DNA of 64,000 nucleotides, from contig JAQZBQ010000002.1 in the NCBI GenBank assembly GCA_029237825.1, positions 248,001 to 312,000 on the forward strand, given 5' to 3'. Position numbers and translations under genes: made by a program. Source of the stretch: Bacteroidota bacterium (GTDB lineage: Bacteria > Bacteroidota > Bacteroidia > B-17B0 > Aurantibacillaceae). Shown here in pieces: positions 37,229 to 62,190 of the stretch; the stretch's first letter is position 1; each line of letters opens with the position of its first letter. The notes beneath the pieces are model-generated. The model worked only from the letters and a program-made list of their open reading frames with translations. It made no database searches and was not told where the DNA came from.

Positions 37229-37360
37229 AATCTAATCCTCTTTCTTGGTACTATCTTATCAACTTTAAGATTATCTAGAGCTTTATCTTGGTAGTTACTT
37301 AGATTATCTATAATTCTTATGCTTGAGTCTTTATTTCTAGTATTTCTTCTAGATTTAATA

Positions 37361-37463
37361 CTAGGACACTTTGTCCTAGTATTTGTCCTAGTTCTAATCT
37401 TAGTATTTCCTCTAAATTCAACTAGGACACTTTGTCTTAGTATTTGTCCTAGTTCTAATACTA
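37361..37463. repeat. 61-bp direct repeat containing CTAGGACA palindromes
   Basis: CTAGGACA-CTT-TGTCCTAG (37361-37379) is a perfect palindrome. It recurs at 37422-37440 with one base changed in the right arm, so the period is 61 bp. Both copies are followed by TATTTGTCCTAGTTCTAAT. Partial copies of the CTAGTATTT flank occur before 37361 and after 37460. The whole gap 37229-37556 is rich in CTAG and has no gene I can support. It lies between the deaminase fusion and the 358-aa gene, both minus strand, so it may control the latter. Confidence 0.65.
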
Positions 37464-37556
37464 GTATTCCTCAAGATATCTAATCTAGTATTCACTCTAG
37501 TTAAACTCTAATTCTTTTTCTTAATTCTAATCTAGTCTTTGTATCTGCTAGTTCTT

Positions 37557-39059
37557 CTATTTAGCTATATACTTAAAGTTTGGAGAATTAAGTTTTTCTC
37601 CATTATCTCCAAGGAGTTTTAATGTTCTCATCTTAGAAAGATGTCTTGAAGCCTTTCTTTCTTCATATCCGAAGTGTTTGGCATATCCTTTCTTGGTCGC
37701 TTCTCCTTTTGATTTAACCCATTCGTACCCAGCTAATTCATCATTATTCAATTCTTTGATTGCAGTATGGTGGGAAACTCTTTTAACCGCTTCCAAAGTT
37801 CTAGGAAAAGTTAGGGTTAGAAAAGGATTTTTCATCTCGTATTCCGGCAATGGTAATTTAAATTTGTCATTTAAAGATCGAAGCGCCTTCATTCCAAATC
37901 CCTTTTCTTCAACGTAATCCATTAAACCAAAAACATAAGTTATTATTGGGTTACGGCTAACGGAAGGTGCCTGAAAGGTATTTAATTGATCTAATGAAAT
38001 AGAAGGCATAGGCGCTCCCGGACTTTTGACAATAATTTTATCATTGTCAATTTCTAGAGCCGATTTAGCACCCTCTATTGAATAATCACGGTGAACAATG
38101 GCATTGATTATAACTTCCCGAAGCACATCAATTGGGAAATCAGGGATATCTTTTCGTTTGAATCCGGAGGTATCTTTTGACAGAGGTAAAACCTTCTTTA
38201 GCCATTCTTCAACCAAATCAGGAATTAATACTAAGGGTTGATCAAAGGTAGCGGGCTCTATTTTATAGTCCCCGTAATCTACATGAGCCATCAAAGCTGC
38301 TTGTTTAAATTTTGCACGAGGATTTTCTCCGAAAAGTAAAATCCCCATTCCGGTAGGGCGATATATATTTGCCTTCTCATCAAAATGCATAACGCCTATA
38401 TCAGCCAAAAAACTTTGGAAAGCTTTGTCTTTAGGCTTATACTTTAACTTTGCTTCCTCAATAAACTTACTTAATGCTTCCTGAGAAAATTGAGAAATAT
38501 CGGCTCGTGGAATCGATTTTTTAAACTCTGAAACTTTAGTTTCCGTTTTTGCAACTTTAGCTCGGTGCGTAGCCTGTTTTAAAAAAGCGGCATTCACTTG
38601 TTCTATCTGTTTTTGAAACTCCCGGTCGAACATAATAACTTTGACCCCTTTCTCCTCCATATATCTAATGCCTTCTCCGGCAACAGTAGGATCAGGATCT
38701 TCAATGCCTACATAAATGGTTTTAATTCTTGCGCTGGTAACATGTGTACAACAACCTCGCTTTGGAGGACTTCGCTTTACACAAGGCTCGAGAGTAGAAA
38801 ATAATACAGCGTCTTTCAAGTCTTTACTTATACATTTACGTTCTATTAAAACATACTCAGCATGATTGCCTTCACGCACCTCACCTCTATGCGCAGTTTC
38901 ATAAGTACCATCAGGAAAAACTAATACTGCGCCCACTTTTGGATTTACTTTTCCATCAGTACGTTTTTCAGCTATAGATTTACGCATAACATCAACAGCA
39001 AGCTTCATATACTTCTTAGGGTCAAACCCTTCTATCTTCTTTGTAGTCTTTTTTGCCAT
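37557..39059 (-). CDS. RibD-like deaminase fused to a RecG-C-terminal-type ATPase-fold domain and wHTH
   Basis: A 500-aa fusion. Residues about 15-145 form a zinc deaminase with HAE (66-68) and EPC (91-93) then GCC (102-104). With the following DPDPTVAGEGIRYMEEKG it resembles RibD deaminases more than dCMP deaminases. A linker leads to a region (about 190-420) of the DUF/HATPase_c_4 type: GMGILLFGENPRAKF, LREVIINAIVHRDY (313-326), ALEIDNDKIIVKSPG and RNPIITYVFG...EKGFGM. The C-terminus (about 440-490) looks like a winged helix. The gene sits 12 bases after the Mrr-type gene. A defence role on nucleotides or nucleic acid is inferred from context. Confidence 0.8.
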   Translation of the reverse strand: MAKKTTKKIEGFDPKKYMKLAVDVMRKSIAEKRTDGKVNPKVGAVLVFPDGTYETAHRGEVREGNHAEYVLIERKCISKDLKDAVLFSTLEPCVKRSPPKRGCCTHVTSARIKTIYVGIEDPDPTVAGEGIRYMEEKGVKVIMFDREFQKQIEQVNAAFLKQATHRAKVAKTETKVSEFKKSIPRADISQFSQEALSKFIEEAKLKYKPKDKAFQSFLADIGVMHFDEKANIYRPTGMGILLFGENPRAKFKQAALMAHVDYGDYKIEPATFDQPLVLIPDLVEEWLKKVLPLSKDTSGFKRKDIPDFPIDVLREVIINAIVHRDYSIEGAKSALEIDNDKIIVKSPGAPMPSISLDQLNTFQAPSVSRNPIITYVFGLMDYVEEKGFGMKALRSLNDKFKLPLPEYEMKNPFLTLTFPRTLEAVKRVSHHTAIKELNNDELAGYEWVKSKGEATKKGYAKHFGYEERKASRHLSKMRTLKLLGDNGEKLNSPNFKYIAK

Positions 39060-39071
39060 TATAATGCAAAT

Positions 39072-39926
39072 TTATTTAAACTCCTCAAAAAATGCTGAAT
39101 CAATATCATAAACCGTTTTGGGCTTAAGTCCTAATTCAAATTTTTCAAACAAATCTACAAGTTTTTCCCCATCTACTAATTCTATAGGTGGAACTCCATC
39201 ACGTATAGCTTCGTTTCTTGCTTCTTTAGTAAATCTTCCGGTTGTTAAAATGATCCCTTTGTCAGCCCGGCCTTGCATGGCACCACGAAAATCTCGAACC
39301 TGTCCAGGCCCTACTGATTCTTTATAGCGTTTACATTGAAATAAAACCTTAAAACTTACCAAATCATTAATCTCCAATAAACCGATGCCGTCTATTCCGT
39401 TGTCCCCAGATTTTCCGGTAACTTGAACATTTTGAAAGCCGCATTCAGTTAATAAGCGTTTGCAAATCCTTTCAAATCCATCCGGACTAAGGCTTTGAAT
39501 AACAGACAGTAAATTATATGAATGTTCTTCTTCTTCAGTTGAATACTCTTCCTCCATAATTTTATTTTCAGGAGAAGTTTTTTTAACCGTACTGTTTTTT
39601 ACCGAAAAACTTGCCTGAACAGTTTTGTACAACTCCATTACATCCTTCTCGCTTAAGTTTGAGCCCAAGCCTTTATCTGTAAGTTTCCAAGTACCGCGAA
39701 CTTTTGAATCAATATAACCAGCTTTCGTTAAATACATTCTCGCCCATTGAATGCGGTTTTTTACTCTTGATTGCCCACTTGGAATGGTTTGTTCAACTTC
39801 AGATTCAGGAATTTTTAATTTCTCAATAACTGAATCTATAACTTCAGAAGTAACGCCTGCCCCTCCCATATCTTTAAGGGTTTTAACCACCGGGTTTATG
39901 TATATTAAAAATTGCGGGCCTTTCAT
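39072..39926 (-). CDS. Mrr-type restriction endonuclease (type IV-like)
   Basis: A 284-aa two-domain protein. The N-terminal Mrr_N winged helix (about 5-90) includes RVKNRIQWARMYLTKAGYID and GTWKLTDKG. An acidic linker (about 120-135) leads to the Mrr catalytic domain (about 145-265) with DGFERICKRLLTECGFQNV, Asp179 in GIDGIG and QCKRYK (Gln197, Lys199). These complete the D...QxK active site. Mrr proteins cut modified DNA, so it may target phage DNA with modified bases. It lies 3 bases after the TIR gene and 12 bases before the deaminase fusion, deep in the defence run. Confidence 0.9.
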   Translation of the reverse strand: MKGPQFLIYINPVVKTLKDMGGAGVTSEVIDSVIEKLKIPESEVEQTIPSGQSRVKNRIQWARMYLTKAGYIDSKVRGTWKLTDKGLGSNLSEKDVMELYKTVQASFSVKNSTVKKTSPENKIMEEEYSTEEEEHSYNLLSVIQSLSPDGFERICKRLLTECGFQNVQVTGKSGDNGIDGIGLLEINDLVSFKVLFQCKRYKESVGPGQVRDFRGAMQGRADKGIILTTGRFTKEARNEAIRDGVPPIELVDGEKLVDLFEKFELGLKPKTVYDIDSAFFEEFK

Positions 39927-39929
39927 AAT

Positions 39930-41108
39930 CTAGTTTTTAGTTTGGATTGTGTCGATAAATTGATGTAATTTCTTCTCATTAGGAAATAGATTAATCAATT
40001 CAGTAAAAGAAATTTCCGGATGATGATCTCCCATTGACCAAGCCGTTAATTCATAAGGATTGTAAATGAAGACAATTGAGTCATTTTTAAAATAATAATT
40101 TCGAAAATTTTTCTTTTCTGCTTCGAACCCATGATCATACACATAAAAATATTCAGAAACATCTTCTTCGTATTCAGTTTTTGCTTTTACCATCAACTTA
40201 TCATGAATGCAATCTCTTAGTACCCCTAGAGAAGATTCAAAATTTTCAAATAATTCCTCCAATTCTAAATTACGCAAAGGATTAATTAAATAATTATTTC
40301 CTTTCGACCAATAATTTCCATGTGCACACCCAGTTTCATATAAAGACCAAAATGAAGTATAACTAATAAAATTTTTGCTAATGAAATGCAAATTAATCGT
40401 ACCGTAACAAGTACTATCTGCTTCAAACATACCCCAACCTTCTTCCTCTTTATTTATTTCAACACCTTTCAAATGATTAAAATAGTTATCTCTTGAACGA
40501 ATCAAATATTTTAAAACATCATTCTGAATCAAAAGGTTTAGCTCCTTTAGTGATTCGGCTTCTATGTTTTTAAACTGAGGGTATCTGATGTCATAAGTTT
40601 GTTTAGGGCTTTTGTCAACATATTCTCCTTTCACGTTTTTTTCATCGCTTTCAAATCCAGCTATCTTATGCTTCCTCGATTCTTCTTCTTTAATCACAAT
40701 TGATCGCTGAAAATTAATAGCTTGTAGAATTTTATTTTGATAGTCAGTTGATGAGTACTCAACCCATTGAAATTTATTAAGTTTAAAAGGAATCTGACAA
40801 GCATCTATTTTAATTGGAATAATATAAATATCAGAATCTAGTTTCTCTTCGCAATAAATGACGGCTTGATTAAATTCTTTTTGCACATAGCCTCGCTTTC
40901 CCACAGATGTACTAGAAAGCAACAACAAAATGAAGTCAGCTTTCTGTAACGCTTCTTGAATCATCAAATCCCAATTTTGACCGGGCAATAAGTCTTTCTT
41001 ATCCATCCAAGGCTCGAATCCATTTTCAGAGAGGAATTTGTGAAGTTTGTCAGCGTACTGAAAATCTTCCGCTGCATAGCTTATGAATACTTTATTATAC
41101 ATCAACAA
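39930..41108 (-). CDS. TIR domain fused to DUF3298/RsiV-like domain
   Basis: A 392-aa protein. The N-terminal TIR domain (about 3-135) has KVFISYAAEDFQYADKL, FEPWMDKKDLLPGQNW and FILLLLSSTSVGKRGY; Glu78 in VQKEF is a good candidate for the NADase catalytic residue. The C-terminal part (about 172-375) reads as DUF3298: RYPQFKNIEAESLKELN, YETGCAHGNYW and FIYNPYELTAWSMGDHHPEI. In RsiV that domain binds lysozyme. No signal peptide or membrane helix is seen, so it is cytoplasmic. TIR plus DUF3298 is unusual; the latter could be the sensor that activates NAD depletion. Its start overlaps the 182-aa gene by 7 bases. Confidence 0.82.
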   Translation of the reverse strand: MLMYNKVFISYAAEDFQYADKLHKFLSENGFEPWMDKKDLLPGQNWDLMIQEALQKADFILLLLSSTSVGKRGYVQKEFNQAVIYCEEKLDSDIYIIPIKIDACQIPFKLNKFQWVEYSSTDYQNKILQAINFQRSIVIKEEESRKHKIAGFESDEKNVKGEYVDKSPKQTYDIRYPQFKNIEAESLKELNLLIQNDVLKYLIRSRDNYFNHLKGVEINKEEEGWGMFEADSTCYGTINLHFISKNFISYTSFWSLYETGCAHGNYWSKGNNYLINPLRNLELEELFENFESSLGVLRDCIHDKLMVKAKTEYEEDVSEYFYVYDHGFEAEKKNFRNYYFKNDSIVFIYNPYELTAWSMGDHHPEISFTELINLFPNEKKLHQFIDTIQTKN

Positions 41109-41650
41109 TTATTTTTTCTGTTATTTTTACCCCAAATACAAAGAAAATTCTCAGCTTCATGCGGCTTTAATTGTTGAATTACTTTTGGGAACGTAGTTAA
41201 AGGGAGGCTTCTTTTCATTTGAATTTTTCCTTTCAATGCTTTATTTACTCCTTTTATAACGCCTGCTTGAACGTATACTTCTTTCGGATAAACCCCCAAG
41301 TTAAATCCAATTCTCAATGCAGTGTCATAGCTCCATAGGGCACCTAATCGAAAGGTATTCTTTCTAACTTGCTCTGTTATTTTAAAAACATCTTCAAAGC
41401 TCTTGCATTTAGCAATTGGATGTATTTTATCTATTCTTAACAATTCATCGAGTCCAGTTCTACAAACTTTAGTTCCAACTCTTCTTTGATGTGAATCCAT
41501 ATTAATTTTGCCGTTGAATTTAGGACTTTGACCTAAAGTCGCTTGGGATATAGCATCAGACAAATCAAGATTTTTGTAATATTTCTCAATCTCTTTTAGA
41601 TGAACACACTCAACCGTTTTATATTTCTTTATAGCTTTATTTAATGTCAT
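41102..41650 (-). CDS. Unknown 182-aa protein of defence run
   Basis: A soluble, basic protein. The segment FRLGALWSYDTALRIGFNLG with PKEVYVQAGV looks like a helix-hairpin-helix or DNA-glycosylase-like core. NMDSHQRRVGTKVC precedes it and LKPHEAENFLCIWGK ends the conserved part. I recall a widespread hypothetical family with a similar YDTALRIG/LCIY pattern but no known activity. The gene lies 11 bases after the HNH gene and overlaps the TIR gene, so it is probably translated with them. It may be a third component of the ATPase-HNH module. Function unknown. Confidence 0.6.
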   Translation of the reverse strand: MTLNKAIKKYKTVECVHLKEIEKYYKNLDLSDAISQATLGQSPKFNGKINMDSHQRRVGTKVCRTGLDELLRIDKIHPIAKCKSFEDVFKITEQVRKNTFRLGALWSYDTALRIGFNLGVYPKEVYVQAGVIKGVNKALKGKIQMKRSLPLTTFPKVIQQLKPHEAENFLCIWGKNNRKNNC

Positions 41651-41661
41651 GTATAATTGAA

Positions 41662-42723
41662 TTAAATAACCCCATTCAAATTATTTTCACAATTGGGGTC
41701 ATTAAGAATGAAATCATAAAATGTTTTCATTAAAATTCCCTTATCAATATTAAAATAATCTTCGAAGGTTTCTGAGGCATCTTCATAAAATGCTTGGTAA
41801 GAGACACCATTTTTTTTACATAGTGTTGTATGCTTTTTTAATATCCAACCTTTCCATATTTTACTTTCTTTGGATATTGTAGCTTTGTATCTACTTTCAA
41901 TATTAAAAACTTGTTTCCACGATTCCATTTTTAAATTATTTGCCGCTGGTTCGCAATCAATGTGTAAAGTCCATGTGTTAGGGTTGTCTAGGTCTGTGTT
42001 AGCAGATTGAATTCCCAGATTAATTTTATGATCGGCAATAGTATTGTCAAGGGGGTAGTATAATGGTCTTTGTGTTGTAGTCGCAGGAATAAAAGGTGTG
42101 TCAATTTGCCCTTTGCTTTTTGAATTGCAATTGTGACACATGGGAAATAAATTTGCGAAATTGACAGTTATAAAAGGATAAATAGATTTAGGCAAGTAGT
42201 GATCATAATCGTCTCTCCCGTCATCATGTTCACATAGTAGACAATCCATTCCACAAAAAGGGCAAACACTATATTCATTTGTTTCTCTAAATGTATTGAA
42301 ATGTGCTTTTAAAGTACCGCATTTATTTACGACTTGCGTATAGCCAAGAATTTTATTATCACCCCAAAGATTATCATAAAGACTTTTAATTTGAACTCTG
42401 ATAGCGGGTGGTAATCCTGTATATTTTATAGGAATTACGGTCATATTACATATACCAAGTATATTGCTGTTCGTGTGGTATACATTATGAACAATTAATT
42501 TTTCGTTTGGTGGTAACGTTACGTATGCATTAAAAATAGCTTCAAGTTTATTATCAATCTGTTCGGTATACTCATCAACAATGTTATTAAAATCTGCTTC
42601 AATGTAATGTGCATGATCGTATACAGGATGGGCGTTGGCAAATAATTGCGCAAAAAAGTAATCTAAATACTTATTTAAGTTCTCAATCGCATGAGGTGAT
42701 ATAGATTTATAGAAGTAAAGCAT
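41662..42723 (-). CDS. HNH endonuclease (PtuB-like, Septu-type)
   Basis: A 353-aa protein. The N-terminal 150 residues are unrecognised. The HNH core has CPFC (154-157), DHYLPKSIYPF (Asp174-His175 catalytic pair), Asn188 in TVNFANLF, and CHNCNSKSKG (196-203) as the second zinc pair. It overlaps the ATPase gene by one base (42723), and AAA ATPase plus HNH in this order is the PtuA-PtuB pair of Septu. It likely cuts nucleic acid under control of the ATPase. It is longer than many PtuB proteins, so a related ATPase-HNH system is an alternative. Confidence 0.85.
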   Translation of the reverse strand: MLYFYKSISPHAIENLNKYLDYFFAQLFANAHPVYDHAHYIEADFNNIVDEYTEQIDNKLEAIFNAYVTLPPNEKLIVHNVYHTNSNILGICNMTVIPIKYTGLPPAIRVQIKSLYDNLWGDNKILGYTQVVNKCGTLKAHFNTFRETNEYSVCPFCGMDCLLCEHDDGRDDYDHYLPKSIYPFITVNFANLFPMCHNCNSKSKGQIDTPFIPATTTQRPLYYPLDNTIADHKINLGIQSANTDLDNPNTWTLHIDCEPAANNLKMESWKQVFNIESRYKATISKESKIWKGWILKKHTTLCKKNGVSYQAFYEDASETFEDYFNIDKGILMKTFYDFILNDPNCENNLNGVI

Positions 42724-44498
42724 TACTTTTCTTTGTTTTCGATTTCCTCTTTAATAGTTCGTAATTTACTAAATAGATCAAATTTTTGAACTGAATCACC
42801 GAATTTGGAATTCAATTTGTCAATAACCGCCCTAAGTTGGTCCAGTGTTTTTACACCATCGATCATATCTTTTAACTCCTTCTTAGCCATTTCGGAAATA
42901 CTTTCTTCCTTTTCGAATATTTCTTCAAGAATAACTGAGATAGAAGCTCCGTACATTTTTACAGTTGGGTTGTCATACTCAATAATTCCATTGGTCTTTG
43001 TAAATCGGTAAACATCTTCTGTTATACAGTCAGAAATTACAAATGGTGAATGCGTTGTTATTATAATTTCTTGCTTTCTAACTTTTTCGATATTTCCATG
43101 TCCATCAAATGTCTCCGCAGCCATATAATTCAACATTTGAATTAATTTAGCTCGCCATTTAGGATTAAAATGTGTATCCGGTTCATCTATAAGGAATAAA
43201 CATCCTTCCTGCTCCATCATTAAAATAGTGCCTATTACTTCATTAAATTGATGTTCTCCATCTGATAGTGCTTTATAATAAATATTTTTGGGAGCTTTTG
43301 AAACATCAATTTTTTTTGAGATAAAAATTTTTTCAATCCTAAAGACCAGTCTTGATGGATCCGGCTTTGACATTTCATCTGAAAAATTGTATGATTTATG
43401 CACTTGAAGCATTAAATCTCTTGTCTTTTTATTAACTAGATAGAGGTTAAAAATTTCCAGCTCATAAAAAACCTTAAATAGATTAAATGCGTTTTCAAAG
43501 TGGTATTTAAAGGAAGCTTTTGTGGCATCGTTTACCAAAAAGTCAAGAATAAGTAAATTGTATTTGTCAACCTTCTTTTCAGTCCATGTCGTAGCACAAA
43601 GTTTTAGCTGTTGAAGATTTGATGCTAAACGATCGTCAAGCGGAATAACTCGTTTATAAATCTCATCTGTATTGATTGTGATTCTGAATGCCTGCAGCTC
43701 ATTAATCTTTAAAACCTCTTTTAAATACGCTAGCTTTTTTCCATCAGCAAGAAGCATATTAGCAATGAATATTGAGAAATTTGTACTATAGTCTAAAAAA
43801 AACAATCTATGATTGTCCGCTAAATCGGGAAGTTCTTTTTTTTCAAATTCCTTAAAATAATGATATTTGAGCTTAAAAAAAGGGTTACTTAACAGCTCAT
43901 TTTGTCCTGAAGTATAGGCGATAAGTTTGCTAGGCAATAATCTTTTTGTATTTAAGCTAATTGCTTTATAGGAATCATTTTCATTTTGACGTTTTAATGA
44001 AAATTCCGGCTCAAATCCCAATTGCTTTGAAACTCGAACATGTATGTAGTTATTAAGGAGTAACTGATTACAGTCCTGATCCCACTCATTTTGTATGATG
44101 TTTTCAATCTCATTAATATAAAGATCCTCAAATTTTAATTTATTGAATTTTGTTAAAGGAGAATTGCTTGATATGTATTTTTCTCGAACTTCATTATAAT
44201 CATTAACAAAAAGATCATAAATGTCCTTTTCAGTCTTTGGCAACAAATATTCAATTTCAAAACCGAAATTTTTGTTTGCTTTCTCAGCTTCTGAAACTGT
44301 AGAAAGATGGGTTATTTCCAAAAAGTAAAATATTTCCGAAAATAATTCGAGAAAATTAGACTTTCCGCTTCCATTTAGTCCCGCAAATACCTTAGTAGAA
44401 AGCCGATCATTATGAAATGAAAGATTGAACTTGTACAGTTTATTTGCCGACAAGCTTCTAAAGTCATCTCCTAATATTTTTACGTTAACTAATTTCAT
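42723..44498 (-). CDS. AAA ATPase (PtuA-like, Septu-type)
   Basis: A 591-aa SMC/ABC-like ATPase of the OLD/PtuA class. The Walker A motif is FAGLNGSGKSNFL (about 38-50), the signature is LSDGEHQF (411-418), Walker B is CLFLIDEPDTHFNP (433-446), and the His switch is IITTHSPFVISD. The coiled middle (about 60-400) is unrecognised. There is no C-terminal TOPRIM domain, unlike OLD nucleases. Its start overlaps the hsdS stop by 4 bases (ATGA), so translation is coupled to the restriction system. It probably senses phage DNA or nucleotide state and controls the HNH protein; this follows from Septu and is inferred here. Confidence 0.85.
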   Translation of the reverse strand: MKLVNVKILGDDFRSLSANKLYKFNLSFHNDRLSTKVFAGLNGSGKSNFLELFSEIFYFLEITHLSTVSEAEKANKNFGFEIEYLLPKTEKDIYDLFVNDYNEVREKYISSNSPLTKFNKLKFEDLYINEIENIIQNEWDQDCNQLLLNNYIHVRVSKQLGFEPEFSLKRQNENDSYKAISLNTKRLLPSKLIAYTSGQNELLSNPFFKLKYHYFKEFEKKELPDLADNHRLFFLDYSTNFSIFIANMLLADGKKLAYLKEVLKINELQAFRITINTDEIYKRVIPLDDRLASNLQQLKLCATTWTEKKVDKYNLLILDFLVNDATKASFKYHFENAFNLFKVFYELEIFNLYLVNKKTRDLMLQVHKSYNFSDEMSKPDPSRLVFRIEKIFISKKIDVSKAPKNIYYKALSDGEHQFNEVIGTILMMEQEGCLFLIDEPDTHFNPKWRAKLIQMLNYMAAETFDGHGNIEKVRKQEIIITTHSPFVISDCITEDVYRFTKTNGIIEYDNPTVKMYGASISVILEEIFEKEESISEMAKKELKDMIDGVKTLDQLRAVIDKLNSKFGDSVQKFDLFSKLRTIKEEIENKEK

Positions 44499-46318
44499 TT
44501 AATGATGTTGAAGTATATTCCTGAGCGTTCTTTTTTTTCACGATCTTTTATTAGCTCAAAATCTTCTTCTGATACATTTAACTGCATGTTTTCGTTCTCG
44601 GCATCATAAAATAATTGTTCTAATTCAATGAATGGGTTCTCCTTATTAATGGCAGAAAAAACAAATGACTTTAAATCATCTGCTCCATTTAAATGTGGAT
44701 ACTTTTTTAATTCCTCTGAAGAATAATAGTCCGGAAAAGTAACATGCTCCTCCATTAAAAAACGAATAAGCATTTCATTTGAGAAATGATAGCCTTGATA
44801 TTTATCTTTTACCCACTCAGCAATTTGTTGGCTACTAACTTTATCCCATGTTAATTTACTTTTTGGTTTTTTAGAGTGAAGTTTCTTCCATTCGCTATAA
44901 AATTTCTTCCCTTTGCTTTTAGCAGTTTGCTCATCAATATCAAAAGGGTCACCATAACGGGTATCTAAATTGTCATAATCGCCTCTTTCTAATTTTTTGA
45001 TTTCATTCTCAAAATACTTTTTGTTTTTTTTTCTTTTAATAGGATCTTGTTCCTCAGGTTCATTGCCTTCGAAGTTGTGCCACTCCTCTTCAATAACGAC
45101 TTTACTCAAATCCAATTCACCTTTAAATGCTTTTTGACTTAAACTACGATATAGATTTTCTAACTCTTGTAAACTATTTTTATATTTTGTTTTAATATCT
45201 TCTGTTTTTTCGACTATCAGACCAAACTTGAATTGAAGCTTTTGCGTTGGATAAATCATTTTAAGGTTCATTACTCCCCCCTTGGTAATATTTTTCATTG
45301 AACCACTTGTCCCAGAAGAGATTTCACTGATAGTTCTTCTAAAGGAACTCCAATTTATACAATACCATAGGAATAAAGAATCAATTTGTTTTTCTTCTGA
45401 AAGAATAAATTTCCAAATTCTATCAGGTAAGGCTAAGTTTTTAACGTCATCAAAAACATATGTAGAAGCTCCAACTAATTCTGTTGTATTCATTCTTGAC
45501 AAAAGGATATCGCCCTTTTTTACTAGATGACTATTCGGAGGAACATAACCTTTAGGTAACCATTTTGATTCATCTTTATTAAAACTTCCCCAAGAAACCG
45601 CACTAGTTTTTAAAACCTTAAAATCACCAGCGGACTCCTTGCTCACTGATTGAATACTTTTACCTGTATCAAGGCGCAAAACCACCTCATTAAGTTTGAT
45701 CGTATCCCATTCCTTTTCATTTTTTACTGGATCTCCAAACATTTTCAGAAAAACACTTTTCACAAATTCATTTAATAACAGAAGAGATTCTTTTCTTTTT
45801 TCAATCAGTACCTCTATTTTACTCAAAGTTTGAGCGATTCTAATTTGATCGTCATAAGGCGGTATAAATATTTTTTCCTTTAAGTAGTTGTCCAGTTTAA
45901 GATTAATAATCCCCGTTGTTTTATTTTGAAATTTGAGTGTCTTCCCTTGAATATGTGCGATAAATAACTGAAAAAAAAGATATTTTGGGTAAATTTTTAT
46001 TTTATCAGGTCTAAGGACTGTTGTAAAATTATTGCATAAATACTCATCTTCAGTTTCTAAGTCAAAGAACACCACACGGCCTACAGGTTGGTTTGGACTT
46101 CCACCTGATTTTTCTATAATAATGTCACCTTTTAGTAATTTTTTTTGCCGAACTTTATTAGCATCTATTTTCCTGTAGACTAAATTTTCAAAATTAATTA
46201 CACCAAGATTGGTGAAGTTTGCCGTTCGAATAACTTTTACACCTTCTCCCGTATTTGCTTCTAATCCCCATTCTCCTGACATTTTATGGGTGATTAAATC
46301 AACAATTCTAGCTTCCAT
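44495..46318 (-). CDS. hsdS: Type I restriction-modification specificity subunit with long C-terminal extension
   Basis: A 607-aa HsdS. TRD1 (about 15-150) ends in KLDNYLKEKIFIPPYDDQ, the central conserved helix is IRIAQTLSKIEVLIEKRKES, and TRD2 (about 200-375) is followed by LQFKFGLIVEKTEDI. Two full TRDs imply recognition of a bipartite DNA site. Normal HsdS is about 400 aa; here about 190 extra residues follow (from about 415), including WKKLHSKKPKSKLTWDKVS and AEWVKDKYQGYHFSNEML. I do not recognise this domain. It abuts hsdM with a one-base overlap and overlaps ptuA-like by 4 bases. Confidence 0.92.
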   Translation of the reverse strand: MEARIVDLITHKMSGEWGLEANTGEGVKVIRTANFTNLGVINFENLVYRKIDANKVRQKKLLKGDIIIEKSGGSPNQPVGRVVFFDLETEDEYLCNNFTTVLRPDKIKIYPKYLFFQLFIAHIQGKTLKFQNKTTGIINLKLDNYLKEKIFIPPYDDQIRIAQTLSKIEVLIEKRKESLLLLNEFVKSVFLKMFGDPVKNEKEWDTIKLNEVVLRLDTGKSIQSVSKESAGDFKVLKTSAVSWGSFNKDESKWLPKGYVPPNSHLVKKGDILLSRMNTTELVGASTYVFDDVKNLALPDRIWKFILSEEKQIDSLFLWYCINWSSFRRTISEISSGTSGSMKNITKGGVMNLKMIYPTQKLQFKFGLIVEKTEDIKTKYKNSLQELENLYRSLSQKAFKGELDLSKVVIEEEWHNFEGNEPEEQDPIKRKKNKKYFENEIKKLERGDYDNLDTRYGDPFDIDEQTAKSKGKKFYSEWKKLHSKKPKSKLTWDKVSSQQIAEWVKDKYQGYHFSNEMLIRFLMEEHVTFPDYYSSEELKKYPHLNGADDLKSFVFSAINKENPFIELEQLFYDAENENMQLNVSEEDFELIKDREKKERSGIYFNIIK

Positions 46319-47889
46319 TATAAAACTCTTTTTAGTTCGTCAATTCCTTTGACAATTTCCTTTTCCAATATTGATAATTTATTTAAAATCACTGTAGGAG
46401 TTTCAAATTTAACATCAACATATTCTTCATTCTTGTAACGGCTTATGCTTAAATCATATTCATTTTTAATTATTTCCGTTTTTGGAACAAGAAAATGATT
46501 TTTAGTTCTATCAACGCTTTTTTTCTTGTTTTTAAATTCTTCAATTATTAAATGGAGATCGCCAAAATCACGTTCTCCATTTGGCATAATCAATTCAGTC
46601 CTTTTATCATCTAAGCTTCGACCATCGTTTTTCATTTCATAAAACCAAATATTATTGGTTTCTCCTCCCTTAGTAAAAATCAATATGGCGGTTGCAACTC
46701 CGGTATAAGGTTTAAAAACTCCACTTGGTAAACTAATGACAGCTTTTAATTCACATTTGTCAATTAATATTTTTCTTGTTTCAACAAAAGCTTTACCACT
46801 TCCAAACAACACTCCTTGTGGGACAACTACACCGGCAGTACCACCCAAGCGAAGCATTTTGTAAATTCTCTCAATAAATAATAACTCACTTTTTGTAGTA
46901 CTAATACTAAAAGTTTCATTTAAGTCACCTTTATCAATATTACCTGTAAATGGAGGATTTGCCAAGACAATATTGTAAAAATTATCTTCATTATAATTTT
47001 TGCTTAATGTATCCTTGTAATCAATTTTAGGTTGACTAATACCATGCATCATTAAATTCATTAAACCAATTCGAATCATAGTAGGATCAATATCAAACCC
47101 GTAAAAAGTTTCTCGCTCCAACAACTCTTTCATTTTCTCATCAACCAACTTATCAGCTAATGAGCCTCGTATGAAGCCATTTTCATCGGGTTTACAGTAT
47201 TCCTTACTTGTATATTGTGTTATCAAATATTTGTATGAAGCCAATAAAAAACCTGCCGTTCCACTTGCGGGATCGGCAATCTTATCTCCTAGTTTTGGTT
47301 GAAGCAACTCAACGATTAATTCAATAATGTGCGTTGGCGTTCTGAATTGCCCGTTTTTACCGGCTTGATTTAACTCGCTTAATAAATGCTCATAAAAATC
47401 ACCTTGCGCATCTATAAAACGATTTTCCTTTTGAAGTTCCACAAAAATTTCATCTATTTTCTTTACAGACTCTGTAAGCATTCTTGGGCTAGGTATCAGC
47501 AAAGCCGCATTCTGCATATGTTTAGTGAAATAGGAATTTTCATCATCTAATTGTTTTATAAAAGGAAAAACTTTAGTTTGTACCAACGTATACATTTCCT
47601 CTGAAGGCATTTGTTTAAAGTAACTCCACCGTAATGTTTCCTTTTCTATTGCATTTTCTTCTTTAGTAACATCTACACCAGGAGGAAAAAACCTTCCTTC
47701 AAAAACGGATGTATATTTAGTTCCTAAAAAATCAGCATTACTAATGCTACGTTGATCGTTATCATCTAACTGCTTAATAAAAAGCAAATAGGTAATTTGT
47801 TCAATAGCATTCAATGGGTTGGAAATCCCACCACTCCAAAACTTTTCCCAAAGTTCTCTGACTTTACTTTTAATTGATGTTGTAAGCAT
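46318..47889 (-). CDS. hsdM: Type I restriction-modification methyltransferase
   Basis: A 523-aa N6-adenine methyltransferase. The N-terminal HsdM_N domain (about 1-140) includes KVRELWEKFWSGGISNPLNA. The SAM motif is DPASGTAGFLLASYKYL, and the catalytic NPPF motif is in VLANPPFTGNIDKGDLN. It protects host DNA and supplies the scaffold that binds HsdS and HsdR. All catalytic motifs are intact. It starts one base after hsdR ends and overlaps hsdS by one base, so hsdR-hsdM-hsdS form one operon. Confidence 0.95.
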   Translation of the reverse strand: MLTTSIKSKVRELWEKFWSGGISNPLNAIEQITYLLFIKQLDDNDQRSISNADFLGTKYTSVFEGRFFPPGVDVTKEENAIEKETLRWSYFKQMPSEEMYTLVQTKVFPFIKQLDDENSYFTKHMQNAALLIPSPRMLTESVKKIDEIFVELQKENRFIDAQGDFYEHLLSELNQAGKNGQFRTPTHIIELIVELLQPKLGDKIADPASGTAGFLLASYKYLITQYTSKEYCKPDENGFIRGSLADKLVDEKMKELLERETFYGFDIDPTMIRIGLMNLMMHGISQPKIDYKDTLSKNYNEDNFYNIVLANPPFTGNIDKGDLNETFSISTTKSELLFIERIYKMLRLGGTAGVVVPQGVLFGSGKAFVETRKILIDKCELKAVISLPSGVFKPYTGVATAILIFTKGGETNNIWFYEMKNDGRSLDDKRTELIMPNGERDFGDLHLIIEEFKNKKKSVDRTKNHFLVPKTEIIKNEYDLSISRYKNEEYVDVKFETPTVILNKLSILEKEIVKGIDELKRVL

Positions 47890-47890
47890 A

Positions 47891-50689
47891 TTATGCGGCT
47901 AATTTTTGAATGAATATTATTATTTCGTCAATTTCTTTATTGGAAAAAACACCACGAATGCCATCAGGGTGTATTCTTGTGAATGGTGCAGTAATCAAAT
48001 CTTTTTTCTCAACATCACCTTTTTCAATTAAGAAAATTCGAAGTAAATTCAAGAATTCTAATTGACGACTGTTTAAGTATGTATGTTCTTCAATAAACTG
48101 TTCAAATGATTTTGAGACTGAATCCGGAAAGGATTCTAGTATTTCAATACCCAAAATATGTTTAACAAACTGAACTAGTTGGGCTTTTCTATGGTTATAA
48201 ACTCGTCTAAGCAAATCTACTGTTATATGCGGATGCTCATTGTGTAATTGCTCTGCTAATTGTTCCGCTTCTGTTAAAGTAATTTCTCTTCCTTGCTTTA
48301 ATTTTTGTAAAAGAGGATTGTTAGATACCAATTCATTTACTTTCTTTTCAACCAATTCGCGATACTTTTCGATGCTCAATGCCTCATGTTGCGGGCCAAA
48401 TTCAACATATTCTTTTTGACTTACAATATCTTTAAAATTAAATTTAGCAGGGCCGAGTGGAACAACAGACTCCCTATATTTCATTAAAGGGCAAAGTTTT
48501 TGTATTAATTCTTCGAATTTATTCTCAGTAATTGAAGCCCAAAAATGATTGGTTTGACTTGTTCGAATTATTTCTTCCTCTTTAGCAACAGTATTTACAG
48601 ATAAGGGCAATTCGGAAATCTCTTCTCTAATACTTTCTTTAAGCGCTTCAAATTTTTCTTTTTCATTTGCCAAATGTGCTAATGAAACTTCAAGAATGTC
48701 TTTTTCAAAACGCATAGCTTTAAATTCAGCGTCAGAAACTGTTCTGAATAATGGTTTTACTACAGCTTTTAAAAATTCTAATTTATCACTGGTTAAAAGA
48801 TTCCAGAAGTTCTCATCATCCAATCGCTGCAACTCATGCTTGGCATCTAAAATCACGATAGAATTATTCGGAAGGGTTGCAATTTGCTTTCGCAACTTTA
48901 CTATTTCTTTCGTCACAATTTCGACTTCATTTAATTCTTGTGCCTTTTCAATTTTATCTAAACGAATTCCAAATAATCTAACTGGTAAAGGTAAAGTTGT
49001 AGTTGCCTCTTTACCACGAGGATTTAATTTAAAGTATTCGAAATTATCCCAACAATCTAAAATCAGAAAAATATTTTTTTCTGTACACCACGATTTCATT
49101 TTTGTTGGCTCTAATAAGCGTGTACCACGCCCAATCATCTGCCAAAATTTTGTATAGGAATAAACAGGTTTAGCGAAAACTAAATTCACTAATTCTCTAA
49201 CATCTATTCCGGTATCAAGCATATCCACACTTATTGCTATACGTGGCATATCGTTATTTGTGAACTGATCTAACAATCCTCCTTTACCGTAAACACGAGG
49301 GTCATCACTAACCAATACTTTAGCTAATTCACCTTTATATTCGGGATAAAAAGCATCAAACAGCTCTTCCATTCTTCGAGCATGTTTCATTGTTGTGCAG
49401 AAAATTATAGTCTTTCCGGGTAGCACACCATTCGCATCTTTAATGGATTCTTCCATAAATTCACGAACAATTAAGGCATTTGTAGCTTTATTAATTACCG
49501 ATTTTTCTATTTCAGTTCCTTCGTAATTTATTTCAGATACGTCTTTCCCATCCAAAATCAAATTTTTCTGATCCTCTAAAGAAATAGTTCGTTTATTAAT
49601 TCCTTCTTCCTGAAACTTGGTTTTAATTTTCATTACTTGAAAGCCACTCAAATAAGGTGGAATGTGATTAAGGGCTTCTTCATACGAATATGCAAAGGTT
49701 GGAACTCCTTCTTCACATTCAAATAATTTAAAAGTATTATGATCTATAACATCAGTTGGAGTGGCAGTTAATCCTAGGGTGATAGTATTGAAGTAATCTA
49801 AAATTTCTTGGTAAGTATTATAAATACTTCTATGACTTTCATCAACTACAATCAAATCAAAGAAATGAGGGCTTAAAGTTTTTTCACTATCTCTAATTAC
49901 GTTTAACATAGTCGGATAAGTAGAAACATAAATCCTTCTATCAGTTGCAATTTCTTTTTCTCCAGGTTTTGGCCAGCGAGGCTCGTTCGGAAGGAATTCT
50001 TTAAATGCTTCAAGAGTTTGATCCCTTAATGCGATGCGATCAACCAAAAACAAAACTCGCTCTGCCCAACCAGCTCTCATCAATGTATCAACTAAAGCAA
50101 TGCAGGTACGTGTTTTTCCTGTACCCGTTGCCATCACCAATAGAAATTTACGTTTGCGTTTTTCAATCGCTTCCATTACTGCTCTTATAGATGCGATTTG
50201 ATAATCCCGTCCGGCAATTTTGGTGTTAATTAATTCACTCGCTAATGCTTTACGAGCTTTTCGTATATATTGGTAGCGTTCTAGGTCTTCACGAGTAGGA
50301 AAACCGTATACCTTCTTTGGTGGATAATTTTCTAAATCCCAAAAATAAATATCATGTCCGTTTGTGTAAAAGCAAAAAGGTAATTCGCCTCCGTGTTGGG
50401 CGTGAATATTTGTACAGTATTGTTTGGCTTGTTCTTTTCCGATGTTGGCATCAACCGAGGATTTTTTCGCTTCAACGACCGCTAAAGGCTTACCATCTTT
50501 GCCTAATAAAACGTAATCACTGAACTGACGACCTGAGTATTTGGTTGTAGGTTCTTCTACCCCGAGCCGGACTCGAACATCAATATCAAACTCCTCAACA
50601 ACTTGAGTATGATCACTAACATTCCAACCTGCAAGTTGCAAGCGCTTATCAATAATATCCTTTCGGGTTTTGGCTTCGTTGCCGGACAT
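47891..50689 (-). CDS. hsdR: Type I restriction endonuclease motor/nuclease subunit
   Basis: A 932-aa restriction subunit. The N-terminal nuclease domain has Asp58 in FSDYVLLG and the EAK catalytic pair in LAVVEAKKSS (Glu73, Lys75). The helicase core follows: Walker A ATGTGKTRTCIALV, DESHRSIYN (DEAH-type box), SAT-like LGLTATPTD, and the C-terminal motif QMIGRGTRL. The last about 250 residues match the EcoEI_R_C type region. It translocates DNA and cuts at a distance when sites are unmodified. It is the first gene of the defence run and diverges from the 375-aa protein gene, with 118 bp between. Confidence 0.95.
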   Translation of the reverse strand: MSGNEAKTRKDIIDKRLQLAGWNVSDHTQVVEEFDIDVRVRLGVEEPTTKYSGRQFSDYVLLGKDGKPLAVVEAKKSSVDANIGKEQAKQYCTNIHAQHGGELPFCFYTNGHDIYFWDLENYPPKKVYGFPTREDLERYQYIRKARKALASELINTKIAGRDYQIASIRAVMEAIEKRKRKFLLVMATGTGKTRTCIALVDTLMRAGWAERVLFLVDRIALRDQTLEAFKEFLPNEPRWPKPGEKEIATDRRIYVSTYPTMLNVIRDSEKTLSPHFFDLIVVDESHRSIYNTYQEILDYFNTITLGLTATPTDVIDHNTFKLFECEEGVPTFAYSYEEALNHIPPYLSGFQVMKIKTKFQEEGINKRTISLEDQKNLILDGKDVSEINYEGTEIEKSVINKATNALIVREFMEESIKDANGVLPGKTIIFCTTMKHARRMEELFDAFYPEYKGELAKVLVSDDPRVYGKGGLLDQFTNNDMPRIAISVDMLDTGIDVRELVNLVFAKPVYSYTKFWQMIGRGTRLLEPTKMKSWCTEKNIFLILDCWDNFEYFKLNPRGKEATTTLPLPVRLFGIRLDKIEKAQELNEVEIVTKEIVKLRKQIATLPNNSIVILDAKHELQRLDDENFWNLLTSDKLEFLKAVVKPLFRTVSDAEFKAMRFEKDILEVSLAHLANEKEKFEALKESIREEISELPLSVNTVAKEEEIIRTSQTNHFWASITENKFEELIQKLCPLMKYRESVVPLGPAKFNFKDIVSQKEYVEFGPQHEALSIEKYRELVEKKVNELVSNNPLLQKLKQGREITLTEAEQLAEQLHNEHPHITVDLLRRVYNHRKAQLVQFVKHILGIEILESFPDSVSKSFEQFIEEHTYLNSRQLEFLNLLRIFLIEKGDVEKKDLITAPFTRIHPDGIRGVFSNKEIDEIIIFIQKLAA

Positions 50690-50807
50690 AAATATTCCTA
50701 GTAAACTACCGAAAAATACGAATTTTTATCGCTTAAGTAGTTAAATTTATTCTTCTAAACAGGAAACCAGCAATTTCATCAATTCTTAATTAAATTATTG
50801 AAAAACA

Positions 50808-51935
50808 ATGAATAACATTAAGCTTAATCGAAAAGAACTATATGACCTAGTATGGTCTATACCAATGACATCCCTCGCTAAAAAATATTTCATTTCGGAT
50901 TCAGGATTAAGAAAAATCTGCGTTAAAATGGAAATCCCTTTGCCAAAGGCCGGTCATTGGGAGAAATTAAAAGCTGGAAAAGAAGTTGAAGTTACGGAGC
51001 TGCCAACCAAATACAATGGAAGTACTGAAATTTCACTAGAGCTGAGAAAAGAAGGAGAAGAAAGCTTAAAGGGCAAGCAATCTCCTGAAGAAGTTTTAAA
51101 AGATGAAATTGAATCTGATTCATCACTCAATATTGTAGTGCCGGATATATTAACAAAGCCTCATAAACTAATAGTTGAAACTAAGAATGCTCATATTAAT
51201 AATGAAAATCGCTTTAGTAAAAACTTCAAAGGTTATTTACGGAGTCCATTAAATATTTCAGCAACCAAACTTAACTATGGCAGAGCCTTGAGAATAATGG
51301 ATACGTTCATTAAAGTAATGGAGCAGCGAGAACATACGTTTCAGTTTAAAAACGATTCAGCTCATCTCGAGATATATGGTGAAGAATTTATAGTAAGCAT
51401 TAGAGAAAAAAACAACAGAATTCCAAAACCCAAAACTGGTAGTTGGCAAGAATATGATTATATCCCTTCCGGAATTTTAGTCTTTTCAGTAAGAATTAGT
51501 TATCATAATATTGAGTGGACAGATGGAAGACTGCCGCTAGAGAGACAATTATCAAAAATAGTAGCCAAGATTGAAATAAAAGCTGCCGAAGAAAAAGAAA
51601 TGCATTTGAGATGGGAAAAAGAAAGAGAAATTCAGGCAGAGAAAGACCGGATAAAGAAGGCAAAAGAGCAGGAAATTGAGAATGAATTGGTAAAATTCAG
51701 GGTGCTGAAGAAAAAGGCTGAACTTTGGAGGGAAGCAAGCGAAATTCGGGCTTATTTGGGCAGTATAGAGGAGAAAGCGGTAAAGGAACAAAGCCTTACC
51801 GATGAGCTCAAGGATTGGCTGAAATGGGCGCACAAGAAGACGGACTGGTATGATCCGAACATTGAAGCGCAAGACCCTTTAATGGAAGGGGTGGATAAAG
51901 GAAACTTGACTTTTAAGAAATCCGGTTATTATTAG
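50808..51935 (+). CDS. Unknown protein with N-terminal HTH-like domain
   Basis: A 375-aa protein. The N-terminus has KLNRKELYDLVWSIPMTSLA with ISDSGLRKICVKMEIPLPKA and GHWEKLKAGK, a HTH-like unit shared by a family of hypothetical proteins often found in mobile islands. A central beta-rich part (about 130-240) and a long charged coiled coil (about 245-330) follow. It diverges from hsdR across 118 bp, so it may regulate the restriction run; that is speculation. It ends before the palindromic terminator at 52109. Confidence 0.65.
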   Translation: MNNIKLNRKELYDLVWSIPMTSLAKKYFISDSGLRKICVKMEIPLPKAGHWEKLKAGKEVEVTELPTKYNGSTEISLELRKEGEESLKGKQSPEEVLKDEIESDSSLNIVVPDILTKPHKLIVETKNAHINNENRFSKNFKGYLRSPLNISATKLNYGRALRIMDTFIKVMEQREHTFQFKNDSAHLEIYGEEFIVSIREKNNRIPKPKTGSWQEYDYIPSGILVFSVRISYHNIEWTDGRLPLERQLSKIVAKIEIKAAEEKEMHLRWEKEREIQAEKDRIKKAKEQEIENELVKFRVLKKKAELWREASEIRAYLGSIEEKAVKEQSLTDELKDWLKWAHKKTDWYDPNIEAQDPLMEGVDKGNLTFKKSGYY

Positions 51936-61532: not shown

Positions 61533-61970
61533 CTAGTTATTATCACCACCAAAGTAGGTTGCTTCGATGATGTCTGCATTGGTAGCAATATCCCAGATGA
61601 CCTCGTTAATTATAGCTTCGCTTGTTAAATGTATTGGTTGAATCGCATGTACCACTACTGTTTCACAAGGTGAACCATCTGTCCGTTTATCTGTGGTTAT
61701 AATAACTGAGCAGTAAGTACAATAGCTGCTCTCTTTCATCATTTGATAAAGGTTGAGGTTGTGGTTATACTCTCCACACCGGCTATTGAAATAAAAGACA
61801 TCCTTACCTAAATAGCGTTCCTTTATCACCCAGGCATATACGTACTGATATCGCAACGATCCGTCTTTTTGCTTCATGGCCACATCTAAACGGAAAACAC
61901 CGGGAGAGGTTTCATCCAGTTTGTACTTCCAGCGCTCGCAAATATTGGTCAGGGAAATTTTTAAATCCAT
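61533..61970 (-). CDS. Unknown 145-aa protein
   Basis: A soluble alpha-beta protein with MDLKISLTNICERWKYKLDE and DGSLRYQYVYAWVI, then a Cys-rich loop (SSYCTYCSVII). It slightly resembles chaperone-like or YbjN-type folds but I do not recognise it. It stands alone between the DHFR-like gene and the exporter, with a 220-bp gap (61971-62190) on the right in which only weak promoter-like matches are seen. Confidence 0.6.
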   Translation of the reverse strand: MDLKISLTNICERWKYKLDETSPGVFRLDVAMKQKDGSLRYQYVYAWVIKERYLGKDVFYFNSRCGEYNHNLNLYQMMKESSYCTYCSVIITTDKRTDGSPCETVVVHAIQPIHLTSEAIINEVIWDIATNADIIEATYFGGDNN

Positions 61971-62190
61971 GATACTAAGAGGTTTAAATTATACCCGAAA
62001 ATAATAATTTATTTAATTTTTAGGCAAGATTCAATGAGACTGTTCAATTTAAAAGTCTTCTTTCTTTGTCCGAGCTTCTTTTACACTCATTTAAAAAGTG
62101 TTATTTACTTTACTATTAACCCGATAAAGTCAATATCTTTACATGGTTTGTGTTAATCAAAACCTGCATTAATTTACATTTACTAGTACA

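What the first reader, a model, noticed from the sequence alone, without database searches (positions are those of the whole stretch)
37557..50689. Single co-directional defence run of nine genes
hsdR, hsdM, hsdS, ATPase, HNH, 182-aa, TIR, Mrr and deaminase-fusion genes all lie on the minus strand. Gaps are -7 to +12 bases, with 4-base overlaps at hsdS/ptuA-like. Such tight coupling suggests one regulated unit in which the restriction system and several abortive-infection modules are co-expressed, not a loose island.
Basis: seen in the sequence. Interest (0 to 1): 0.7.

Follow-up and report, generated by a model that had tools for sequence, protein, structure and literature searches.

The report
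Restriction operon with leashed Septu-like toxin
Nine anti-virus genes in a Bacteroidia bacterium sit head to tail as one apparent operon, but only the first five (a DNA-restriction enzyme plus a Septu-like ATPase and nuclease) stay together in other bacteria, which suggests a restriction enzyme that keeps its own backup nuclease on a leash.

Summary
In detail: nine minus-strand genes, 37557-50689, with gaps of -7 to +12 bases. "One operon" is plausible; "one nine-gene system" is not supported. The block splits in two. A five-gene core, hsdR-hsdM-hsdS-ATPase(TIGR04435, PtuA-like)-HNH, recurs in Bacteroidota, Cyanobacteriota, Pseudomonadota and (without hsdR) Bacillota. The last four genes (182-aa, TIR-DUF3298, Mrr, deaminase-HATPase_c_4) are next to it in none of 15 relatives. 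Inside the core, hsdS is the invariant partner: hsdS or a remnant directly precedes the ATPase in 16 of 16 loci; hsdR is missing from 6 of 15 that can be judged. ATPase-linked HsdS is longer (14 of 14: 469-700 aa) than HsdS of unlinked type I loci (20 of 21: 347-433 aa; one EcoAI-type exception of 605). In two same-genus genomes the 375-aa gene beside this operon borders a different type I operon with other embedded defence genes: a swap site. Best reading: a type I R-M operon whose HsdS/HsdM complex holds an ABC-ATPase/HNH toxin, working like PrrC, plus co-transcribed accessory genes of separate origin. Embedding defence genes in R-M operons is known; the HsdR-dispensable core and HsdS tail are unusual. 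No expression or binding was tested.

The parts
47891..50689 (-). hsdR, 932 aa: HSDR_N, ResIII/DEAD helicase, EcoEI_R_C; short form; nuclease motif and Walker A present
   Evidence: Pfam; REase_I E 9.3e-169; motifs and length comparison
46318..47889 (-). hsdM, 523 aa: HsdM_N + N6_Mtase
   Evidence: Pfam; MTase_I E 4.9e-162
44495..46318 (-). hsdS, 607 aa: two target-recognition stretches, plus a C-terminal tail from about residue 403
   Evidence: Methylase_S, two stretches; alignments; length comparison
44498..45112 (-). C-terminal tail of HsdS (about residues 403-607); of three tail queries (the window's, residues 436-607, and two from plasmids) two hit only their own source record and the window's hit nothing among plasmids
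42723..44498 (-). ABC-type ATPase, 591 aa, PtuA-like, 'restriction system-associated AAA family ATPase'; Walker A GLNGSGKS, signature LSDGE, Walker B FLIDEPD
   Evidence: TIGR04435 384.5 bits against cut-off 300; PtuA model E 1.6e-45; motifs
41662..42723 (-). HNH nuclease, 353 aa, PtuB-like; C154, C157, D174, H175, C199, N200 invariant in 14 of 14 aligned homologues
41102..41650 (-). 182-aa protein of unknown family (accessory)
   Evidence: no Pfam, PADLOC, NCBIfam or PHROG match; relatives
39930..41108 (-). TIR_2 domain + PdaC/DUF3298-like part, 392 aa (accessory)
   Evidence: a homologue of similar length (381 aa) in G276
39072..39926 (-). Mrr-type restriction enzyme, 284 aa: Mrr_N + Mrr_cat (accessory)
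37557..39059 (-). RibD/AID-like deaminase (about residues 1-165) fused to a HATPase_c_4 part, 500 aa (accessory); H66, E68, P92, C93, C103 invariant in 12 of 12
50690..50807 (.). 118-bp divergent intergenic region, the only sizeable space for the operon promoter
50808..51935 (+). divergent 375-aa gene, found beside type I R-M genes in 4 of the 7 loci looked at; its HTH-like N-terminus is my reading, no domain call
37229..37556 (.). 328-bp spacer after the last gene with two near-copies of a palindromic repeat (37360-37407, 37421-37468)

Best explanation
The run is one transcription unit made of two layers. Layer 1 (genes 1-5) is a coherent defence system: an EcoEI-type type I restriction-modification enzyme whose HsdS carries an extra C-terminal tail, followed by an ABC-type ATPase and an HNH nuclease related to Septu PtuA/PtuB. 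Most likely the HsdS/HsdM complex, through the HsdS tail, binds the ATPase and keeps the ATPase-HNH nuclease silent. When a phage blocks or occupies the methylase-specificity complex, or when it engages unmodified DNA that HsdR fails to clear, the pair is released and cuts nucleic acid (tRNA or DNA), arresting the cell. This is PrrC-like logic with Septu-like parts. Layer 2 (182-aa, TIR-DUF3298, Mrr, deaminase-HATPase_c_4) is an accessory set added downstream and expressed from the same promoter, with its own triggers: Mrr against modified DNA, TIR probably by NAD loss, the deaminase on a nucleotide or nucleic acid. Shown from sequence: gene order, junctions, domains, conserved motifs, conservation of layer 1, non-conservation of layer 2. 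Inferred: co-transcription, the leash, the trigger, and the nuclease target.
For: Core order recurs in Pedobacter (two), Chryseobacterium, five more class genomes with M-S-ATPase-HNH in a row (two of them with R), and plasmids of Priestia, Sphingobium, Hymenobacter, Kovacikia and Pantoea. hsdS or a remnant directly precedes the ATPase in 16 of 16 loci; G175 holds only a 268-aa S piece at a contig end and Kovacikia's S is in two pieces. HsdR is absent in 6 of 15 loci that can be judged, including two complete plasmids with no HSDR_N match, and on the ATPase tree HsdR presence changes at least 3 times. ATPase-linked HsdS is 469-700 aa in 14 of 14; unlinked HsdS 347-433 aa in 20 of 21. The tail holds many invariant residues where the target-recognition regions hold few, among four homologues. 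Three tail queries hit only their source plasmid or nothing in 72,556 plasmids, while HsdR hit 290. Accessory genes are absent from 15 of 15 core relatives. PrrC is silenced by a linked, physically associated type Ic enzyme (PMC2610378, passages). PtuAB of retron-Eco7 is toxic and depletes tRNA-Tyr; Septu PtuAB was reported to act on DNA (PMC11555353, passages).
Against: No expression, binding or toxicity datum exists here. A long HsdS is not unique to these loci: an EcoAI-type HsdS in Pseudoalteromonas has 605 aa with a different ATPase and nuclease downstream, and from memory EcoAI HsdS itself is of that length, so the tail may be a general type IB feature. The tail evolves fast, so its absence elsewhere is weak evidence. 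The HsdS structure model failed (mean pLDDT 38), so the tail's fold is unknown. The HNH family has no solved relative beyond a spurious coiled-coil match. G287 keeps S-ATPase-HNH with no M beside it, which a leash needing HsdM would not predict, unless the locus is a remnant.
Confidence: 0.5

Rival explanations
1. Independent modules riding together: the ATPase-HNH pair is an ordinary Septu system, and it, the R-M enzyme, Mrr, TIR and deaminase act separately; the shared operon only gives joint transfer and expression.
For: PADLOC's PtuA model matches the ATPase at E 1.6e-45. TgvAB protects phage-challenged cells without its host R-M genes (PMC11411939, passages). Deaminase, TIR and 182-aa genes occur elsewhere on their own.
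Against: In 16 of 16 loci with this ATPase-HNH pair hsdS or a remnant lies directly upstream, far stricter than riding would give; the NCBIfam PtuA model scores 53 bits against a cut-off of 500.
Confidence: 0.25
2. The ATPase-HNH pair is a direct effector of HsdM/HsdS: it replaces or doubles HsdR and cuts unmethylated DNA marked by the complex, without a toxin-antitoxin stage.
For: HsdR is dispensable (6 of 15 judged loci lack it); HNH motifs intact in 14 of 14; Septu PtuAB of E. coli ATCC25922 reported to act on DNA (PMC11555353, passages).
Against: Nine of 15 loci keep HsdR, so the pair is not simply a substitute; G287 lacks M as well.
Confidence: 0.2
3. One integrated nine-gene system.
For: Eight junctions of 12 bases or less and no internal signals above chance; GC3 similar in all nine genes, 0.24-0.28.
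Against: Accessory genes absent from 15 of 15 core relatives; Mrr and deaminase have higher GC (0.37) than genes 2-7 (0.31-0.32); same-genus neighbours carry other payloads.
Confidence: 0.05

Closest known systems
PrrC anticodon nuclease with type Ic R-M (EcoprrI)
   Same: ABC-ATPase-type toxin encoded inside a type I R-M operon; PrrC is bound and silenced by the R-M enzyme (PMC2610378, passages)
   Different: Here ATPase and nuclease are two proteins, the nuclease is HNH rather than the PrrC type, and the R-M enzyme is EcoEI-like; silencing not shown
Septu (PtuA/PtuB) and retron type I-A effectors
   Same: ABC ATPase followed by HNH nuclease; PADLOC PtuA model E 1.6e-45
   Different: Always directly behind hsdS; no reverse transcriptase among the ten proteins scanned; NCBIfam PtuA cut-off not reached
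NCBIfam TIGR04435, restriction system-associated AAA family ATPase
   Same: The ATPase belongs to it (384.5 bits against 300); the name records the R-M link
   Different: The name says nothing of function, of the HNH partner, of dispensable HsdR or of the HsdS tail
Defence genes embedded in type I R-M operons: TgvAB (V. cholerae), DarTG2 (EPEC, with RptR)
   Same: Extra defence modules inside a type I R-M operon (PMC11411939, passages; PMC12255303, abstract and passages)
   Different: Different modules; there between hsd genes, here downstream of hsdS
E. coli immigration control region (hsdRMS, mrr, mcrBC; recalled)
   Same: Mrr-type enzyme beside hsdRMS
   Different: No ATPase-HNH, TIR or deaminase fusion

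Membership tests
Type I restriction-modification (EcoEI/EcoAI-like) | hsdR, hsdM and hsdS with their family domains, contiguous | tested here: met
Type I restriction-modification (EcoEI/EcoAI-like) | HsdR nuclease and helicase motifs intact | tested here: met
   EAKK nuclease motif, Walker A and DE.H motif found
Type I restriction-modification (EcoEI/EcoAI-like) | Methylates and restricts DNA at a bipartite site | not testable with these tools
   needs methylome sequencing and transformation assays
TIGR04435 restriction system-associated ATPase | Score above the curated cut-off | tested here: met
   384.5 bits against 300
Septu | PtuA-type ATPase next to PtuB-type HNH | tested here: met
   PtuA E 1.6e-45; PtuB only a partial match at E 4e-8, a candidate family (PDC-M62B) scores better at 2.7e-15
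Septu | NCBIfam PtuA equivalog cut-off | tested here: not met
   53.3 bits against 500
Septu | Stand-alone two-gene cassette | tested here: not met
   hsdS or a remnant directly upstream in 16 of 16 loci
PrrC/RloC anticodon nuclease | Single polypeptide of ABC ATPase (AAA_13) plus anticodon nuclease | tested here: not met
   the ATPase matches AAA_21, not AAA_13; the nuclease is a separate HNH protein
PrrC/RloC anticodon nuclease | Silencing by the linked R-M enzyme | not testable with these tools
   needs toxicity and co-purification assays
MADS (methylation-associated defence system) | MAD2/MAD3 models above cut-off | tested here: not met
   MAD2 115 bits against 720; MAD3 19.4 against 420
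Retron type I-A | Reverse transcriptase beside ptuAB | tested here: not met
   no reverse transcriptase match in the ten proteins scanned
Mrr-type restriction enzyme (gene 8) | Mrr_N plus Mrr_cat | tested here: met
   E 9.1e-22 and 4.6e-33
Zinc deaminase (gene 9) | HxE and PC...C zinc ligands | tested here: met
   H66, E68, C93, C103 invariant in 12 of 12; PDB matches to RibD E 3.7e-17

The most novel reading that the evidence does not exclude
A widespread variant of type I restriction in which the restriction motor HsdR is optional and the constant unit is HsdS plus an ABC-ATPase/HNH pair: the HsdS tail makes the DNA-specificity subunit the sensor and antitoxin of a Septu-like nuclease, so that methylation-based self/non-self reading controls an abortive-infection switch.
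Probability: 0.3. Interest if true: 0.75.

Novelty: new variant of a known kind. Interest (0 to 1): 0.47.

Why it matters
If HsdS really leashes a Septu-like nuclease, it gives a second case beside PrrC in which a restriction enzyme guards itself against phage anti-restriction, and it would explain why these PtuA-like ATPases are stuck to restriction loci. HsdR-less M-S-ATPase-HNH loci on small plasmids make the idea directly testable in E. coli with four genes. The variable payloads beside the conserved 375-aa gene also show how abortive modules are exchanged on a restriction-operon chassis.

Tried and rejected
Rejected: one conserved nine-gene system (gene order in 15 core relatives). Rejected: MADS, retron and PrrC membership. 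Tail exclusive to ATPase loci: weakened by the Pseudoalteromonas EcoAI-type HsdS of 605 aa. Led nowhere: AlphaFold models of HsdS (mean pLDDT 38) and of the 182-aa protein (mean pLDDT 33) were too poor to use or search with; viral-contig scans with the ATPase alignment, the 182-aa protein and the deaminase fusion found no relatives; promoter and terminator scans were at chance; PDB searches of the HNH and 182-aa alignments gave nothing credible. Scripts found no loci because I misread the file layout; repeated correctly.

Selection to bear in mind: of 29 other genomes with an HNH match, I fetched the regions of the 7 best; the other 22 are short, weak matches whose wider surroundings I did not examine (one search shows only about 1.5 kb beside those kept as loci). 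Of 10 plasmid records with an ATPase match I viewed 4. Unlinked control HsdS come from the plasmid HsdR hits that I opened (not random) and from five genome loci; Annamia was left out because its HsdS is not annotated as such. Not every neighbour of the deaminase relatives was domain-scanned (20 proteins, chosen by position and size). In one search a Walker B or signature regular expression failed in 3 of 16 ATPases (G306, Hymenobacter, G175); I did not look into these by eye.
Full report
What is there. The window holds nine consecutive minus-strand genes at 37557-50689: HsdR (932 aa), HsdM (523), HsdS (607), an ABC-type ATPase (591), an HNH protein (353), a 182-aa protein, TIR-DUF3298 (392), Mrr (284) and a deaminase-HATPase_c_4 fusion (500). 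Gaps are +1, -1, -4, -1, +11, -7, +3 and +12. The TIR gene may start at an ATG two codons inside the listed TTG, which makes that overlap one base. Outside the run, 14 of 27 same-strand neighbour pairs in the window also have gaps of 12 bases or less, so each junction is ordinary but eight in a row is not. Internal promoter-like and terminator-like sites are at chance level.

The first five genes are a conserved system. The three genome contigs found with the ATPase (Pedobacter alluvionis, P. psychrotolerans, Chryseobacterium sediminis) all have R-M-S-ATPase-HNH in this order, with S and ATPase overlapping; in C. sediminis R is in two ORFs and HNH is shortened. Searching 395 class genomes with the HNH protein gave 29 others with a match at E 0.001 or less; the seven best were fetched and all have the ATPase next to the HNH. 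Plasmids add Priestia (Bacillota), Sphingobium and Pantoea (Pseudomonadota), Hymenobacter (Bacteroidota) and Kovacikia (Cyanobacteriota). The Pantoea ATPase is distant (22.6% over 208 residues, E 2.9e-12) and was found through HsdR. Because most loci were found through ATPase or HNH, their pairing is by selection; the presence of hsd genes is not.

HsdS is the constant partner, HsdR is not. HsdS or a remnant lies directly upstream of the ATPase in 16 of 16 loci, window included: G175 shows a 268-aa piece at the contig end (matching a control HsdS, E 2.7e-11) and Kovacikia has S in two pieces. HsdM is in the locus in 14 of 15 that can be judged (in Sphingobium two genes away from S). G287 has S-ATPase-HNH directly after a gene that reads as a tyrosine integrase beside one that reads as secA (my reading of the translations, no domain scan), with neither M nor R adjacent; its 68%-complete genome has only one weak N6_Mtase match. 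HsdR is adjacent in 9 of 15 and absent in 6 (G287, G306, G362, G428, Priestia, Hymenobacter). HSDR_N matches in G306 and G428 are on other contigs, in G362 about 440 kb away; none is found in G287 or on the complete Priestia and Hymenobacter plasmids; the chromosomes of those two were not searched. On the ATPase tree HsdR presence needs 4 changes, at least 3 of them forced by well-supported branches; shuffled labels need about 5, so the label is hardly clustered.

HsdS is extended. In 14 loci with an intact S, its length is 469-700 aa; in 12 unlinked type I loci it is 347-433 aa. Opening ten more HsdR hits gave nine with an annotated HsdS: 388, 383, 372, 398, 395, 402, 383 and 379 aa, and one exception of 605 aa in an EcoAI-type Pseudoalteromonas locus, itself followed by another ATPase and nuclease gene. 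So 20 of 21 unlinked HsdS are short. Control proteins of the same HsdR group end at the conserved helix (..QKAFKGEL-like), while ATPase-linked ones run on. Among four homologues the tail holds many invariant residues where the recognition domains hold few. Tail queries from the window, Sphingobium and Pantoea found only the two source plasmids among 72,556 records, whereas the window's HsdR hit 290. Fast divergence is an alternative reason for this. HsdR of these loci is 910-935 aa in 7 of 8, against 1118 aa in Sphingobium and 1128-1150 aa in seven controls, and the eight fall on one side of a well-supported branch (97/99) of the HsdR tree; Sphingobium is a long branch. On the HsdM tree the ATPase label needs 2 changes.

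The last four genes are accessory. None of the 15 other core loci has a 182-aa, TIR, Mrr or deaminase match in the stretch held; downstream room was 3.6 kb or more except for Pantoea (0.5 kb). The deaminase fusion is full length in 11 of 394 other class genomes, with the zinc ligands kept in 12 of 12; R-M genes are near it in 4 of 11 (G396, G303, G068, G367), never this core. The 182-aa protein has relatives in 5 of 394 genomes; the closest (42%) is inside another type I operon in G255. The C-terminal part of the TIR protein has matches in 24 of 294 other genomes, of which one, in G276, was shown to be a full-length TIR-DUF3298 relative (42%). Mrr is a common family and was not traced. GC is 0.366 and 0.373 for Mrr and the deaminase, 0.347 for hsdR and 0.307-0.322 for the six genes between, while GC3 is uniform.

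The site is a swap site. The 375-aa gene that diverges from hsdR is present in 2 of 19 other genomes of the genus. In G003 (87% identical) it ends an operon M-S-AAA_13 (RloC/PrrC-type)-SLFN_AlbA_2/HATPase_c_4-R-three unknown genes. In G017 (73%) it diverges, 101 bp away, from a half S-M-metallophosphatase-unknown-unknown-Fic-CD-NTase-unknown-S-unknown-patatin run. G017 also shares the flank at window 61533-63998, so the same chromosomal place seems to hold a different R-M operon with other abortive genes. In the class, 6 of 177 other genomes have the gene; of four loci fetched, one (G221) is next to type I genes by similarity.

How it probably works. Established knowledge: PrrC is an ABC-ATPase toxin physically bound and silenced by a linked type Ic enzyme and released by a phage anti-restriction peptide (PMC2610378, passages). 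PtuAB of retron-Eco7 is toxic when made without its partners and depletes tRNA-Tyr, while Septu PtuAB was reported to act on DNA (PMC11555353, passages). The core here joins both: a PtuAB-like pair whose only constant neighbour is HsdS. I therefore read HsdS, with HsdM, as sensor and antitoxin, and HsdR as an optional first line. This is inference; no toxicity, binding or cleavage was measured. The main rivals are that the pair is an independent Septu unit, or that it acts directly on DNA marked by the M-S complex.

What is known. Embedding defence genes in type I operons is established: TgvAB in V. cholerae (PMC11411939, passages), DarTG2 with the regulator RptR in EPEC (PMC12255303, abstract and passages), and rlo genes (PMC2610378). 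NCBIfam already names the ATPase family by its link to restriction systems. Searches of the held open-licence library for Septu with HsdS, for the NCBIfam name, for PtuA/PtuB with R-M operons, for embedded genes in hsd operons, and for type I R-M with PtuAB found no paper that describes the HsdR-less core or the HsdS tail, judged from the listings and from passages of the papers I opened; most subscription papers and all preprints are missing from that library. A search for a deaminase-HATPase fusion in defence found nothing apt by its listing.

Verdict. The one-system reading holds for genes 1-5 and not for 6-9. The finding is a new variant of a known kind, with one bold but testable claim about HsdS.

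Noticed in passing
window 50808-51935; L114 476-1615; L115 10946-12073; L141 9354-10487: A 375-aa gene with an HTH-like start (my reading) sits beside four unrelated type I R-M operons, divergent or co-directional; a candidate regulator or marker of an exchange site.
   Followed up: partly
L114 (same genus) and L115 (same genus): Two other composite type I operons: one with an AAA_13 RloC/PrrC-type gene and a SLFN_AlbA_2/HATPase_c_4 gene, one with a DncV-like CD-NTase, Fic and patatin inside the R-M run.
   Followed up: partly
L132 12532-15137; L134 12601-14957; L144 12855-16385: In three unlinked type I loci the slot after hsdS also holds an ATPase-type gene plus a partner of other families (Methylocella, Vibrio, Pseudoalteromonas): perhaps a general payload slot.
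   Followed up: no
L082 4508-10055 (G287): S-ATPase-HNH directly after a gene that reads as a tyrosine integrase beside secA, with no M or R: possibly a small mobile unit or a remnant.
   Followed up: partly
window 37360-37468: Two near-copies of a 48-bp repeat with a perfect palindrome CTAGGACA-CTT-TGTCCTAG (one mismatch in the second copy), between the last gene and the next; none expected by chance.
   Followed up: partly
window 33389-35167 and 33502-33589: A large serine recombinase gene whose 3' end overlaps a tRNA-Ser (GGA) gene on the other strand; a likely mobility gene for the island. No matching direct repeat of the tRNA was found in 33000-62000.
   Followed up: partly
L128 3294-15716 (G276): A TIR gene, a 507-aa gene, an 879-aa gene and an HNH gene in a row, with a TIR-DUF3298 homologue 4.8 kb downstream of the HNH gene.
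   Followed up: no
L098 8055-16079 (G255): Another type I operon with HNH_5, two unknown genes, a 182-aa-type protein and a NucS_C/DUF5655 nuclease after hsdS.
   Followed up: no
window 24909-32822: A 2637-aa ORF of markedly higher GC (about 0.45) than its surroundings; not examined.
   Followed up: no
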